34,955 nucleotides of DNA from Candidatus Woesearchaeota archaeon (GCA_023264635.1 JAHFLT010000015.1:1-34955), one strand, 5' to 3'. Counted from the stretch's first letter, positions 2,275 to 7,832 are shown. Program-made: numbers and translations. Notes: generated by a model not told the origin, from the letters alone.

Positions 2275-4020
2275 ATGCAAAAAGAGGTGTATCATTATCC
2301 TACGTTGCATTTTCTTTCAGATGTATGGATATTTATCAATCCCTATACAGTCACGTTTATCGCCTGGTCTCTTGTCCGGTCATTTGCCAGTGTATTGGAG
2401 CTTGCCATCCCAATACTACTCGGAAAGATTATTGACATATTGACAAAATCACAAGACAACACTTTCCTGATTAAGCTGGTTATAGGGGTGGCTGTCATTG
2501 AACTACTTGGACCTACAATCCGTTTGAAGAGTAAATATCATCTGGGGATATTAGGCACAAGGATAGCTAAAGATATCCGTCTTAAGGGGCTTGCCAAGGT
2601 CCTGGAACTTGATTTGGCGTGGCACGAGGAGACTATGTCTGGTGCGGTCATGCAGAAAGTATCTACTGGTGCGGACTCTATAAAAGGACTGATAAAATTT
2701 CTTCGGGAGGATGGTTACACAATCCTGATAAAAATTACAGGAGCACTTGTTGTATTTGGTTATCTGCATATTAAATATCTCCTTCTTCTCGTTGCAGCTA
2801 TTGTATCCTATCTGTGGGTGGAATATCATTGGGATATTATTATCAATCAGCAAAAGAATCGTGAAAGTGCTACTCGTGAACAGTTATTCGGAAGGACGTA
2901 TGAGTTTGCGCATAATATACGTACTGTGAAGGCGTTGGGGATAGAGTCTGCAGTGAAAAGAAAAGCCGCTGATGCAGAAGAGAAACTGTTCGGTATCTCT
3001 AATGAAGTCAGTCTGGTAATGAATCGTAAATGGCGCATCATGCAGACAGTTGTAGCTTTTTTCAAGAGTTTGTTTATCATAGTTGTCTGCATAGATGTCC
3101 TCCGTGGATACCTCTCAGCCGGTATGGTACTGGTTTATATTACTTATTTTCACCAGGTCCATGGTGCACTTAATAATATTTCAGACTCGGTGGATGGTCT
3201 TATTGAGAACAAAAATGGCCTTTATCGTTTCATGACAGTATTAGATAGCCATTCAGAAGTTGATGCTGGTAAGAATCTTCGTTCGCTTTCATCTATTGAA
3301 TCAACCCAGTTCAGTAACGTCTCATTCAGATACAAAGAGAAAAAAGTTCTCTCTGGATTGAATTTCTGCATAAATAAAGGCGAGCGTATAGGTATTGTTG
3401 GCCAGTCTGGCGTCGGAAAATCAACTCTCTTCAAGCTTCTGCTCAAGCTCTATCTCCCAACGCAAGGTGACATATTAATCAACAGTCTCCCTATACAAAA
3501 AATAAAGAGGGACTCTATTACAAAATATCTCACTATTGTTCCGCAGGATACAGAAGTATTTAATTTGTCATTTAAGGATAATATCACTCTTACTGACACG
3601 AAAGTGAATAATTATCGATACAAGCGTGCCTTGGATATATCAGCATGCAGTGATATCATTAAACGGCTGTCCACGGGAGACGAGACACTTATCGGAGAAA
3701 AGGGAGTTCGTTTATCGGGTGGAGAGAGACAGCGACTTGGCATCGCGCGTGCATTGTATAAAGATGCTGATGTTATCTTGCTGGATGAAGCAACAAGCCA
3801 TCTCGACTCGAAGACAGAGCAACAGATAATATCTGCGATGGCCCTTCATCTGGGTAAAAAGACACTGATAGTCATTGCCCATCGTCTTTCAACACTGCGC
3901 ACAATGGACAGGATACTCGTCTTTTCAAGAGGAAGGATAGCCGAAGAAGGGACATATAGTGACCTCCTCGCATCACATGGACTTTTTCACCGACTACACA
4001 AACTACAGGCTACTTCGTGA
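2275..4020 (+). CDS. ABC transporter, fused permease/ATP-binding protein
   Basis: Walker A GQSGVGKST, signature LSGGERQRLGIARAL, Walker B DVILLDEATSHLD, N-terminal TM region; TATA-like ctatatattttta upstream. Confidence 0.93.
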   Translation: MQKEVYHYPTLHFLSDVWIFINPYTVTFIAWSLVRSFASVLELAIPILLGKIIDILTKSQDNTFLIKLVIGVAVIELLGPTIRLKSKYHLGILGTRIAKDIRLKGLAKVLELDLAWHEETMSGAVMQKVSTGADSIKGLIKFLREDGYTILIKITGALVVFGYLHIKYLLLLVAAIVSYLWVEYHWDIIINQQKNRESATREQLFGRTYEFAHNIRTVKALGIESAVKRKAADAEEKLFGISNEVSLVMNRKWRIMQTVVAFFKSLFIIVVCIDVLRGYLSAGMVLVYITYFHQVHGALNNISDSVDGLIENKNGLYRFMTVLDSHSEVDAGKNLRSLSSIESTQFSNVSFRYKEKKVLSGLNFCINKGERIGIVGQSGVGKSTLFKLLLKLYLPTQGDILINSLPIQKIKRDSITKYLTIVPQDTEVFNLSFKDNITLTDTKVNNYRYKRALDISACSDIIKRLSTGDETLIGEKGVRLSGGERQRLGIARALYKDADVILLDEATSHLDSKTEQQIISAMALHLGKKTLIVIAHRLSTLRTMDRILVFSRGRIAEEGTYSDLLASHGLFHRLHKLQATS

Positions 4021-4867
4021 CGACATAAAACAGCTCATTCCCGAATTCCTCGATAGTAATTTCCCAGCCATTGTCTTCACATATCTTCTCAAACCACAAT
4101 CTCCGCGTCTTCTTCATACGCTTCCCGGATAAAGTTTTGGTAGAGAAGCTGACGATAAGATGAGATGCATTGACAAGAGGCAGTATCCTCCGTGAAACAT
4201 TCCTCTCCAGATATTCAAGGGTATCCAATAATTTCCAGAGAAGACATACATCCGCTTTCAGAGTGCTCAACTTCTCTTTTTCGTTGATAACATCCAGTTG
4301 TATAACCTCTCCTTTTATTCCAGCAAGAACAAAATACTCCCTAATCATCCTGCAATCATCGATAGTGATTTCAGTTGCAATATACTTGGGGGTGCTTTCC
4401 ATCCACGGATAACTGAAGGGATTCAAGCCACACGACACGTCAAGTAATGTTGCTGGCATTCCTGTATGTGCGAAGAGGTGCTTGTAGAGTGAGGGATAAA
4501 ACGGAAGCCGTTCCTTGGTCGATGTGTGGGTGGAAAGTATTTTCTTATGTGCTTCTGTATCCACGTGATAGTCACGGTAAGTCTTTTTCAATTCATCAAA
4601 AGCCTTAGCGCGAGCCGCAAGCTGCTGCTGGAATGTTCCGTATACAGCATGTAAATCAGCACGCACTGCTTTAAGCAGAAACTCATACTCCTTTGAGCGT
4701 GAAAACTGTGCAAATGAACGCGTCTCCTCTATTTTCTTAGCTATCTCTTTTCTTTTCTCGATAAAAAATAGAACTCTCTCACCAATCCACCGCTCTTCAA
4801 CAGCACTTATCTCTTTCTTCGCCTTTATAGCAGTAACCAATTCTGGCAATAGACCCGTAAGATTCAT
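4010..4867 (-). CDS. Predicted 16S rRNA methyltransferase, FmrO/Arm/Rmt (aminoglycoside-resistance) family
   Basis: HTSTKERLPFYPSLYKHLF, SAM motif LLDVSCGLNPFSYPWM, ADVCLLWKLLDTLE, VSFSTKTLSGK, C-terminal FGNELFYVV match the recalled family pattern. Start overlaps the rtcA stop by 4 nt. Confidence 0.75.
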   Translation of the reverse strand: MNLTGLLPELVTAIKAKKEISAVEERWIGERVLFFIEKRKEIAKKIEETRSFAQFSRSKEYEFLLKAVRADLHAVYGTFQQQLAARAKAFDELKKTYRDYHVDTEAHKKILSTHTSTKERLPFYPSLYKHLFAHTGMPATLLDVSCGLNPFSYPWMESTPKYIATEITIDDCRMIREYFVLAGIKGEVIQLDVINEKEKLSTLKADVCLLWKLLDTLEYLERNVSRRILPLVNASHLIVSFSTKTLSGKRMKKTRRLWFEKICEDNGWEITIEEFGNELFYVVTK

Positions 4868-5961
4868 AGGCGTTCCTCTCGCGTATGCATGACAGAAATG
4901 CAGTTCCTCTCTACGCTGAAAACCGGTCCCAGAAAATGTTCAATAATGTACATGTTAGTTTTGGTGTGCATGCTTAATGTACTGGTGCACAGTTTTCCAC
5001 CAGCTAAAGCGAGGTACAGCAGAAGATTATCAGCAAGATACACATCCACTGCTGCGCTGCTTTCTATCTCCATAAGCAACTTTTTTGCTGCTTCCTCTCC
5101 CACGACCTCTGCTTTTTTTCCTTTCTCTCCCAGTGCATCAGCTCCAAGTCTTATGGGGTTCCTGATATCCTCTTCTTCTTTTCCGAACATTGCATGGAGT
5201 GTAATGCCAGAGCCCGTAGATAACGTGTCCTGATATTGTGTCTCAATAATCACTGGACAGTTAAGCTTTTTCACCATAAACTGCGCAGCATGCGCCTGTC
5301 TTTCTGCAACTTTCGCACCTTGCAGATCAATCGATGCGTGTGAGATTCCCTTTATGCACAATAAACTTTCTCGTTTACTGAGTGCATACGGTTTGCATCT
5401 CTTACGCACGTTCATAAGGAAATCATCAAAACTATGTTCGTTTCGCTTAATCATTGGCTTGATTTTTACCTCCACCAGCCCAGCTCCTTTTGGGTAATAT
5501 CCACGTCTTACTAGTTTCACATCAATTTTTGCAAATCGTAATAATTGTGGAAATAAAACGTGCTGCATATAATCTATAGGCATTGCCCATGCAACATCTG
5601 TTCCTCCAACAAGAGTCAATGAAACACGCTTGCCAGCAAAGAGCAATGGCGGCATGAGTGATTGTAGAAGCAGTGAGATAGATCCTGCAGTTCCGATGTC
5701 TATGGTAATTTTGTGATGGCTAACTGGTTTTGGATGAAAGACAATTTCTGTAGAACCTAGTTTTGCTCCTTCACATTCCGAGCCGCATAGCTCACCAAGA
5801 GTCATGATTGCTGTAAGATGTTGCGCTTTTAATCCTACATCTTTTCGTCCTTTTCTGATATCTGTACATATAAATGGAATGCCTGTTACTGTTGATAGCG
5901 CTAATGCTGTTCGGACAATCTGTCCTCCCCCTTCAAGATAGGAACCGTCAATGGCGAGCAT
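4864..5961 (-). CDS. rtcA: RNA 3'-terminal phosphate cyclase
   Basis: MLAIDGSYLEGGGQIVRTALALSTVTGIPF, RKGRKDVGLKAQHL, GTAGSISLLLQ, RGYYPKGAG. Confidence 0.95.
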   Translation of the reverse strand: MLAIDGSYLEGGGQIVRTALALSTVTGIPFICTDIRKGRKDVGLKAQHLTAIMTLGELCGSECEGAKLGSTEIVFHPKPVSHHKITIDIGTAGSISLLLQSLMPPLLFAGKRVSLTLVGGTDVAWAMPIDYMQHVLFPQLLRFAKIDVKLVRRGYYPKGAGLVEVKIKPMIKRNEHSFDDFLMNVRKRCKPYALSKRESLLCIKGISHASIDLQGAKVAERQAHAAQFMVKKLNCPVIIETQYQDTLSTGSGITLHAMFGKEEEDIRNPIRLGADALGEKGKKAEVVGEEAAKKLLMEIESSAAVDVYLADNLLLYLALAGGKLCTSTLSMHTKTNMYIIEHFLGPVFSVERNCISVMHTREERL

Positions 5962-6143: not shown

Positions 6144-6629
6144 TCAGAAATGAGTCAATAATAATTTTGCCAGTTTTCTTCCAATTCCCGGAAAACAGCA
6201 GAGAATTTTTTCTTGAACCTGCTTGGTCTTATCACCCCTCATTATTTTCATTTCCGGCAGGAAATAAACAGGTTTCTCTTTCATCTGAAGTACTATCTGT
6301 GCAGTATCTTGTAGTGATTCCGAAAAAATAATAGGAATAGTAAGTCCGATAGTAATCTTTTACCATACTGTCTAAAAGAATTTCGAATGGGAAAACATAT
6401 GCGGTTCCAAGAACCCTTCAATAACAAGGACGGCATTTTTATATTTTTCTTTCATTTTCAGCAACTGTATAAATAATCTCTTTTCAAATACAGTCTGACA
6501 AAAATCAGAACTCGTCTTCCTTTCAATAGCTGTGTCTCCGATAATATAGTCAGCAGCGACTAATTGCTTTCTTATTGTATTGCAATGGAGCAGAGCTAAT
6601 AATCTCTTGTGGTTCACAATAATCAACAA
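6144..6629 (-). pseudogene. Decayed ERCC4-type (XPF/Hef/Mus81) nuclease with internal stops
   Basis: ADYIIGDTAIERKTSSDF catalytic motif, then in-frame stops (SKFF*TVW*), then in the same frame KITIGLTIPIIFSESLQDTAQIV...FPGIGRKLAKLLLTHF* (ERCC4 C-terminal part plus HhH). Confidence 0.72.
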
Positions 6630-6731: not shown

Positions 6732-7832
6732 ATGACGATAACCCCCCTCCAACGTTTTGAACTAAAGAAAACAATCCGCGAACTGAGAGGCTATCGTGGG
6801 AGGCACACTGAATTTGTATCAGTTTATGTTCCTACTGATTATGACATGAACAAGGTCATATCCCATCTTGCACAGGAACAGGGTACTGCAGAAAACATCA
6901 AATCCACCTCTACGAGAAAAAATGTCATAGACGCCTTAGAAAGAATGATCCAGCATCTTCGTCTCTTCAAGCGCACTCCAGAGAATGGACTTGCAGTTTT
7001 CTCAGGCAATGTCGCAGAGCGGGAAGGACAATCTGATGTCAAAGTATGGAGCATTGAGCCGCCAATCCCGTTAAAGATTCGAATGTACCGATGCGATAAG
7101 GACTTCAAAATAGAGCCATTAGAGGATATGCTTGACATAAAGGAGTTCTATGGTTTAGTAGTATTTGACAGGAGAGATGCAATGCTCGCTTTTCTCAAAG
7201 GAAAAACAATCATTCCTCTGGTAAAAACACACTCAGAAGTTCCAGGTAAGACAAAAGCAGGCGGACAAAGTGCTCACCGATTTGCGCAGATAAGAGAAGG
7301 CGCGAAAGTTGAGCATTTTAAGAAAATTGCAGAATATATGAAGGATGAATACCTCAACAAAGAAGGTCTAAAAGGCATCATCATTGGAGGCCCGAACATT
7401 ACGGTAAATGACTTTCTTGGAAGAGATTACCTAACGGGTGATGTAAAGAAAAAAATCATAGGGGTCAAGGATCTGTCTTATACTGGAGAATTTGGTTTAC
7501 AGGAATTGTTGGATAAAAGTCAGGACGTGCTTGCCAACGAAGAGGTAGCTGAGGAGAAGAAAATTGTTGGGAGATTTATGGAACTTCTTGCAACTAGGCC
7601 TCGCCTTGTATCTTATGGTGAAGAAGAGGTCAGGAAATTCCTTGAGATGGGAGTTGTTGACACTCTCTTGCTATCTGAAAGCCTTTCAGAGCAAAAAATA
7701 GAAGAATTCGAGCGGCTGGCACAACGAACAAACGTCAATGTCAAGCTCATCTCTACGGAAACACGCGACGGCGCGCAGCTTCGTGATTTAAGCATGATTG
7801 TCGCTATTCTGCGCTACGAGTTGGAACGGTAG
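6732..7832 (+). CDS. prf1: Peptide chain release factor aRF1
   Basis: NIKS (AENIKSTSTRKNV) and GGQ (KAGGQSAHRF) motifs. Start set at the internal ATG MTITPLQRFELKK. Confidence 0.95.
   Translation: MTITPLQRFELKKTIRELRGYRGRHTEFVSVYVPTDYDMNKVISHLAQEQGTAENIKSTSTRKNVIDALERMIQHLRLFKRTPENGLAVFSGNVAEREGQSDVKVWSIEPPIPLKIRMYRCDKDFKIEPLEDMLDIKEFYGLVVFDRRDAMLAFLKGKTIIPLVKTHSEVPGKTKAGGQSAHRFAQIREGAKVEHFKKIAEYMKDEYLNKEGLKGIIIGGPNITVNDFLGRDYLTGDVKKKIIGVKDLSYTGEFGLQELLDKSQDVLANEEVAEEKKIVGRFMELLATRPRLVSYGEEEVRKFLEMGVVDTLLLSESLSEQKIEEFERLAQRTNVNVKLISTETRDGAQLRDLSMIVAILRYELER

What the first reader, a model, noticed from the sequence alone, without database searches (positions are those of the whole stretch)
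4010..5961. Archaeal FmrO/Arm/Rmt-family 16S rRNA methyltransferase in an operon with RtcA
The 285-aa protein carries hallmarks of the aminoglycoside-resistance m7G1405 family (STKERLPFY, LLDVSCGLNPFSYPWM, GNELFYVV), best known from actinomycete producers and resistant pathogens. Its start overlaps the stop of the RNA 3'-phosphate cyclase gene, suggesting a joint role in rRNA modification/repair, or resistance to decoding-site inhibitors or ribotoxins.
Basis: partly seen in the sequence, partly recalled or inferred. Interest (0 to 1): 0.78.

Follow-up and report, generated by a model that had tools for sequence, protein, structure and literature searches.

The report
Archaeal ribosomal RNA methyltransferase gene
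A Woesearchaeota genome carries a relative of the bacterial enzymes that block aminoglycoside antibiotics by methylating the ribosome's decoding site; about half of this archaeal phylum has it as an old, single-copy gene lying among translation and ribosome-assembly genes, so it is more likely a normal ribosome modification than a drug-resistance gene.

Summary
In detail: a 285-aa FmrO/Arm/Rmt-family methyltransferase (4010-4867, minus) starts in an ATGA overlap with the stop of an RtcA gene (4864-5961). Membership is secure: Pfam FmrO 1e-24; the top solved structures by profile are all m7G1405 enzymes; HxSTxER, DxxCGxNP, the Lys and the NExFY motif are shared with ArmA, RmtC-F and Sgm. G1405 is present in this genome's own 16S rRNA. 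The RtcA link does not hold up: it occurs in 2 genomes of one genus and 0 of 78 other fmrO loci; rtcA is on another contig in the sister genus; the two genes do not co-occur preferentially. Instead fmrO sits behind aRF1 in 11 archaeal families, and in the aIF1A-RIO1-PNO1/Dim2-Top6B ribosome-maturation cluster in two others. It is present, nearly always once, in about 49% of 371 genomes of the phylum. Archaeal sequences form one clade apart from the bacterial enzymes and mostly group by archaeal family, as expected of old vertical inheritance. Best explanation: a constitutive methyltransferase of decoding-centre G1405, acting in 30S maturation. The family's presence in Nanoarchaeota was published in 2013; its breadth and operon contexts appear unreported in the papers I could search. 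Activity is untested.

The parts
4010..4867 (-). FmrO/Arm/Rmt-family SAM-dependent 16S rRNA (G1405-N7-type) methyltransferase, 285 aa
   Evidence: Pfam PF07091 1.1e-24; NCBIfam NF000466 1.1e-43, below the equivalog cut-off; Sgm/RmtF/RmtC/ArmA/RmtB in PDB; conserved motifs
4864..5961 (-). RtcA, RNA 3'-terminal phosphate cyclase, 365 aa; co-directional, upstream of the methyltransferase
   Evidence: TIGR03399 6.6e-99; PF01137 2.3e-70
4864..4867 (-). ATGA stop/start overlap joining rtcA and the methyltransferase gene (probable translational coupling)
   Evidence: read from sequence; the gap is 20 bases in the sister genome
6732..7832 (+). aRF1 peptide chain release factor, divergent from rtcA-fmrO; aRF1 is the gene that directly precedes fmrO on the same strand in 11 other archaeal families
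   Evidence: Pfam eRF1_1/2/3; neighbour survey. The ORF as listed starts at 6609; the ATG at 6732 is the likelier start
2275..4020 (+). ABC transporter (membrane + ATPase domains), convergent, overlapping the 3' end of the methyltransferase ORF by 11 bases; probably unrelated in function
   Evidence: Pfam PF00664, PF00005

Best explanation
The gene encodes an archaeal branch of the FmrO/Arm/Rmt family, a SAM-dependent methyltransferase that most likely places a methyl group on N7 of G1405 (E. coli numbering) in helix 44 of the organism's own 16S rRNA. Its N-terminal helical domain would dock on the assembled or nearly assembled 30S subunit. The Rossmann domain would bind SAM through DxxCGxNP, and the HxSTxER, Lys and GNExFY segments would form the target pocket. 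It acts as a constitutive, housekeeping modification of the decoding centre made late in 30S maturation, not as an inducible or acquired drug-resistance factor. The overlap with rtcA is a genus-specific operon arrangement that gives co-expression and no shared pathway. Shown here: family membership, conservation of the motifs, presence of the target nucleotide, distribution, vertical pattern and operon contexts. Inferred: that G1405-N7 is the atom methylated, the timing in 30S maturation, and the physiological role.
For: Family: Pfam, NCBIfam and PDB matches. A profile of 45 archaeal sequences hits only m7G1405 enzymes strongly (Sgm 7e-46, RmtC 5e-42, RmtF 1e-35, RmtB 2e-32, ArmA 8e-32); the next methyltransferase is at 2e-4. 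Profile-profile with five bacterial enzymes gives 2.4e-54 over the whole length including the N-terminal domain. In a low-confidence model search the top 16 structures are all of this family. Motifs: D143, G147, N149, E278, K212, R120, S116 and E119 are invariant or nearly so in 81 archaeal sequences and shared with ArmA/RmtC/D/E/F. Target: the own-genome 16S reads CACCGCCCGTCA with G1405 intact. Housekeeping: single copy; 173 of 371 genomes by Pfam, about 182 of 371 at E below 1e-16 with the archaeal profile. Archaeal sequences form one clade (100/99) apart from bacterial ones and mostly group by family. aRF1 is immediately upstream on the same strand in 22 loci of 11 families, 18 of them within 30 bases. 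PNO1/Dim2 lies upstream on the same strand in 8 loci of 2 families, with RIO1, aIF1A, NMD3-like and Top6B near it in subsets of these. Not virus-borne in the collections searched, apart from armA in two Acinetobacter contigs labelled phage.
Against: No activity data. The NCBIfam equivalog cut-off for Rmt is not reached (149 of 250 bits), and identity to characterised enzymes is only about 24-30%, so a shifted target is possible. Half of the phylum lacks the gene although G1405 is unchanged in the gene-lacking genomes checked, so the mark is dispensable. Archaeal proteins have an N-terminal domain about 17 residues longer in the window protein and lack the bacterial GxxGMExxY loop, which could change substrate contacts. 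The gene also sits in unrelated contexts (signal peptidase I divergent, RNase D-like downstream) in other families.
Confidence: 0.68

Rival explanations
1. Resistance or self-protection: the enzyme methylates G1405 to shield the archaeon from aminoglycoside-like or other decoding-site inhibitors made by neighbours or hosts.
For: Closest characterised relatives are resistance enzymes. The chemistry would be the same, and G1405-N7 methylation blocks 4,6-disubstituted 2-deoxystreptamine aminoglycosides (PMC12933310).
Against: Present in about half of a whole phylum as a single-copy gene, grouped by archaeal family in the tree, with no mobile-element setting seen near it and with translation/ribosome-maturation neighbours.
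Confidence: 0.13
2. One reading: RtcA and the methyltransferase act together in rRNA modification or repair, or in defence against ribotoxins.
For: ATGA overlap in the window and a 20-base gap in the sister genome, implying co-transcription in this genus.
Against: 0 of 78 other fmrO loci have rtcA within the fetched flanks. In same-family G002 they are on different contigs. rtcA is in 10 of 16 fmrO-bearing and 34 of 44 fmrO-lacking relatives, so no positive co-occurrence.
Confidence: 0.05
3. The archaeal branch is a true homologue but modifies a different nucleotide (another guanine of helix 44 or another RNA), having diverged from the m7G1405 enzymes.
For: Only 24-30% identity to characterised enzymes, below the equivalog cut-off, a longer N-terminal domain and a missing GxxGMExxY loop, and a deep split from the bacterial clade.
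Against: SAM and putative target-pocket motifs are retained across 81 sequences; G1405 and its surroundings are unchanged in the own genome.
Confidence: 0.14

Closest known systems
Arm/Rmt/Sgm/FmrO 16S rRNA (guanine-1405-N7) methyltransferases (Pfam PF07091; ArmA, RmtA-H, Sgm)
   Same: Whole-length homology, two-domain layout, HxSTxER, DxxCGxNP, central Lys, C-terminal NExFY
   Different: Chromosomal, phylum-wide and single copy in archaea; N-terminal domain about 17 residues longer in the window protein; no GxxGMExxY loop; below the NCBIfam Rmt cut-off; a clade separate from the bacterial enzymes
Nanoarchaeum equitans and Nst1 (Obsidian Pool nanoarchaeon) rRNA (guanine(1405)-N(7))-methyltransferase, reported 2013 (PMC3655853)
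   Same: Same family name, same archaeal phylum, described there as absent from other archaea then sequenced and shared with bacteria
   Different: That paper notes presence only and treats it as a Nanoarchaeota signature. The survey here extends it to about half of 371 genomes and adds operon contexts. Direct sequence comparison with those two proteins was not made here.
RtcA, RNA 3'-terminal phosphate cyclase (TIGR03399)
   Same: The upstream gene is an ordinary RtcA above the family cut-off
   Different: Its position next to fmrO is specific to this genus

Membership tests
FmrO/Arm/Rmt m7G1405 methyltransferase family (PF07091) | Score above the Pfam FmrO gathering cut-off | tested here: met
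   87.7 bits against 27, E 1.1e-24
FmrO/Arm/Rmt m7G1405 methyltransferase family (PF07091) | SAM-binding DxxCGxNP and preceding HxSTxER motif | tested here: met
   H114, S116, E119, R120, D143, C146-G147, N149-P150; shared with ArmA/RmtC/D/E/F and conserved in 81 archaeal sequences
FmrO/Arm/Rmt m7G1405 methyltransferase family (PF07091) | Central Lys and C-terminal NExFY/NELxY segment | tested here: met
   K212 99%, E278 100%, Y281 88% across archaea; same columns in the bacterial enzymes
FmrO/Arm/Rmt m7G1405 methyltransferase family (PF07091) | N-terminal helical 30S-docking domain | tested here: met
   Profile aligns with RmtB from position 4 and with the bacterial profile from the N-terminus, with an insertion of about 17 residues; helical in the model, but that part has low confidence
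FmrO/Arm/Rmt m7G1405 methyltransferase family (PF07091) | Closest solved structures belong to this family and not to another methyltransferase class | tested here: met
   Top 16 Foldseek hits all m7G1405 enzymes (model mean pLDDT only 57.6); profile search 1e-31 to 1e-45 for the family against 2e-4 for the next
FmrO/Arm/Rmt m7G1405 methyltransferase family (PF07091) | Target nucleotide G1405 present in the host 16S rRNA | tested here: met
   CACCGCCCGTCAAG and AAGTCGTCAC in G000 16S
FmrO/Arm/Rmt m7G1405 methyltransferase family (PF07091) | Catalysis of N7 methylation at G1405 | not testable with these tools
   needs in vitro assay or RNA mass spectrometry
Rmt resistance equivalog (NCBIfam NF000466) | Score above the curated equivalog cut-off | tested here: not met
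   149.4 bits against 250; I therefore do not file it as an Rmt resistance enzyme
Rmt resistance equivalog (NCBIfam NF000466) | Confers aminoglycoside resistance | not testable with these tools
RtcA (TIGR03399) | Score above the equivalog cut-off | tested here: met
   331 bits against 250

The most novel reading that the evidence does not exclude
m7G1405 is a native, maturation-coupled modification of the decoding centre in about half of the Nanoarchaeota, and the bacterial aminoglycoside-resistance enzymes are one offshoot of a family whose older role is ordinary ribosome biogenesis.
Probability: 0.3. Interest if true: 0.7.

Novelty: new member of a known kind. Interest (0 to 1): 0.45.

Why it matters
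If the archaeal enzymes make m7G1405 constitutively, a modification known as an antibiotic-resistance mark is a normal feature of many archaeal ribosomes. That bears on where the clinical Arm/Rmt genes came from, on how the decoding centre tolerates the methyl group, and on the automatic labelling of such archaeal genes as resistance genes in resistome surveys. The aRF1 and RIO1-PNO1/Dim2 contexts give concrete, testable hypotheses about when in 30S assembly the mark is made.

Tried and rejected
RtcA partnership: rejected as a general link. Virus or phage carriage: a viral-contig scan found none, and the phage collection held only two Acinetobacter 'phage' contigs whose match has the armA identity and span. 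Presence of the gene explained by a changed target site: rejected, because G1405 is unchanged in genomes with and without it. A rare 16S variant (C1404U, G1497A, U1498A) at first seemed to track a second fmrO copy in family f89, but four other families carry the variant with no Pfam-detectable fmrO. Papers on Sgm and RmtC structures are not held.

Full report
Observation. The window carries two co-directional minus-strand ORFs at the stated coordinates: a 285-aa protein at 4010-4867 and a 365-aa protein at 4864-5961. They share the bases ATGA, the upstream stop and the downstream start. The upstream one is RtcA (TIGR03399, 331 bits against a cut-off of 250; PF01137 2.3e-70). The downstream one matches Pfam FmrO at 1.1e-24, NCBIfam Rmt at 1.1e-43 but below that model's equivalog cut-off (149 of 250 bits), and Sgm, RmtF, RmtC, ArmA and RmtB among solved structures. 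The gene is single copy in its genome. The genome's relatives are Woesearchaeota: a same-genus genome carries the gene on contig JACQSS010000064.

Family membership. A profile of 45 archaeal homologues finds Sgm (7e-46), RmtC (5e-42), RmtF (1e-35), RmtB (2e-32) and ArmA (8e-32), with the next methyltransferase at 2e-4. Profile against profile, it aligns with five plasmid-borne enzymes from the N-terminus to the end at 2.4e-54. Although the AlphaFold model is weak (mean pLDDT 57.6), its 16 best Foldseek matches are all m7G1405 enzymes. HxSTxER, DxxCGxNP, K212 and the C-terminal NExFY segment are conserved in 81 archaeal sequences and shared with RmtD2, RmtF, RmtE, RmtC and ArmA. Differences are an N-terminal domain about 17 residues longer in the window protein and the absence of the bacterial GxxGMExxY loop.

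Target. The genome's own 16S rRNA has the standard decoding-site sequence with G1405 intact (CACCGCCCGTCA, AAGTCGTCAC). Genomes of the same order without the gene have the same G1405, so the presence of the gene is not explained by a changed target.

Distribution and history. With Pfam FmrO, 173 of 371 genomes of the phylum have the gene. With the archaeal profile 212 match at E 1e-3 or better, and by my count of the listing about 182 of these are strong (E below 1e-16), the remaining 30 being weak and probably other methyltransferases. Apart from family f89 it is single copy by Pfam. A tree of 81 sequences from the phylum and 6 bacterial ones puts 79 of the 81 archaeal sequences in one clade (100/99). 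Within it, sequences mostly group by archaeal family (f61 with 22 rows, f41, f36, f20, f59, f94, f27, f2, f54, f104, f84), although f83, f98 and f86 are split and many deep forks are unresolved. This looks like an old gene passed down with losses, not an acquired resistance gene. Its presence in N. equitans and Nst1, and its sharing with bacteria, were reported in 2013 (PMC3655853); I found no later treatment in the library.

Neighbourhoods. In 79 other fmrO loci with flanks of up to about 6 kb (L043 to L122, without L042, which duplicates L047), rtcA occurs only in L047, the genome of the same genus. In the sister genus G002 the two genes are on different contigs. Across 60 relatives, rtcA is present in 10 of 16 fmrO-bearing genomes and 34 of 44 others (my count). 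So the rtcA link is local. The recurrent partners are different. aRF1 lies upstream on the same strand in 22 loci of 11 families, 18 of them within 30 bases and usually overlapping, mostly followed by a TrmB-type regulator and often by PheS (identified from its sequence, not by a Pfam search). In families f83 and f94 the gene follows PNO1/Dim2-type KH protein (arCOG04150) in 8 loci, with RIO1 kinase, aIF1A, NMD3-like protein and topoisomerase VI B (also identified from its sequence) nearby in subsets of these. RIO1 and PNO1/Dim2 are established late small-subunit maturation factors (general knowledge). In the window itself aRF1 is the next intact gene beyond rtcA, in divergent orientation, which may be a rearranged relic of the aRF1-fmrO order (inference).

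Mechanism. I infer a SAM-dependent enzyme that docks on the 30S subunit by its N-terminal domain and methylates N7 of G1405 during or after late 30S maturation, as a constitutive mark. Shown: family, motifs, target nucleotide, distribution, vertical pattern, neighbours. Not shown: activity, exact atom, timing, phenotype. G1405-N7 methylation would make such ribosomes insensitive to 4,6-disubstituted aminoglycosides as a side effect (PMC12933310), but nothing in the context points to drug selection.

Novelty. It is a member of a known family in a phylum where the family was already noted. What appears new, within the limits of the searchable literature, is the breadth (about half of the phylum), the vertical pattern and the two translation/ribosome-assembly contexts. 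The tree lacks bacterial chromosomal homologues and other archaeal phyla, so the direction of transfer between domains is open.

Noticed in passing
L044:6128-6907 (G082) and L052:1011-1772 (G272); a third genome, G322, has a fragment: Genomes of family f89 carry a second, diverged fmrO gene (THDNLMRRYDNN in place of HxSTxERL) that groups with the bacterial Rmt enzymes and not with the archaeal clade (100/99); possibly a separate acquisition or a shifted target.
   Followed up: partly
16S rRNA in G082, G272, G322 (L149, L153, L155) and G207, G221, G267, G377 (L166-L169): A rare decoding-site variant, C1404U with compensating G1497A plus U1498A, next to the G1405-C1496 pair, in five families; four of them have no Pfam-detectable fmrO and one (f89) has two copies.
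   Followed up: partly
window:5990-6629 (-): A decayed ERCC4-type (XPF/Hef-like) nuclease gene: an 85-aa ERCC4 piece (Pfam 2.4e-13) followed by frame-shifted, stop-interrupted remnants with a helix-hairpin-helix-like stretch, between rtcA and aRF1.
   Followed up: partly
16S rRNA of G209, G374, G080, G304 and G092: C1400, the P-site residue before the decoding helix, reads U in several genomes with and without fmrO.
   Followed up: no
L048, L049, L065, L067, L071, L082 and others of family f61: In this large family fmrO is divergent from an archaeal signal peptidase I gene, often with an RNase D-like exonuclease gene downstream.
   Followed up: no
phage records CAKLQH020000068.1 and CAKLQF020000043.1: Two contigs labelled 'Acinetobacter phage MD-2021a' carry a FmrO gene whose match has the same span and identity as armA; they may be misassigned plasmid or transposon contigs.
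   Followed up: no
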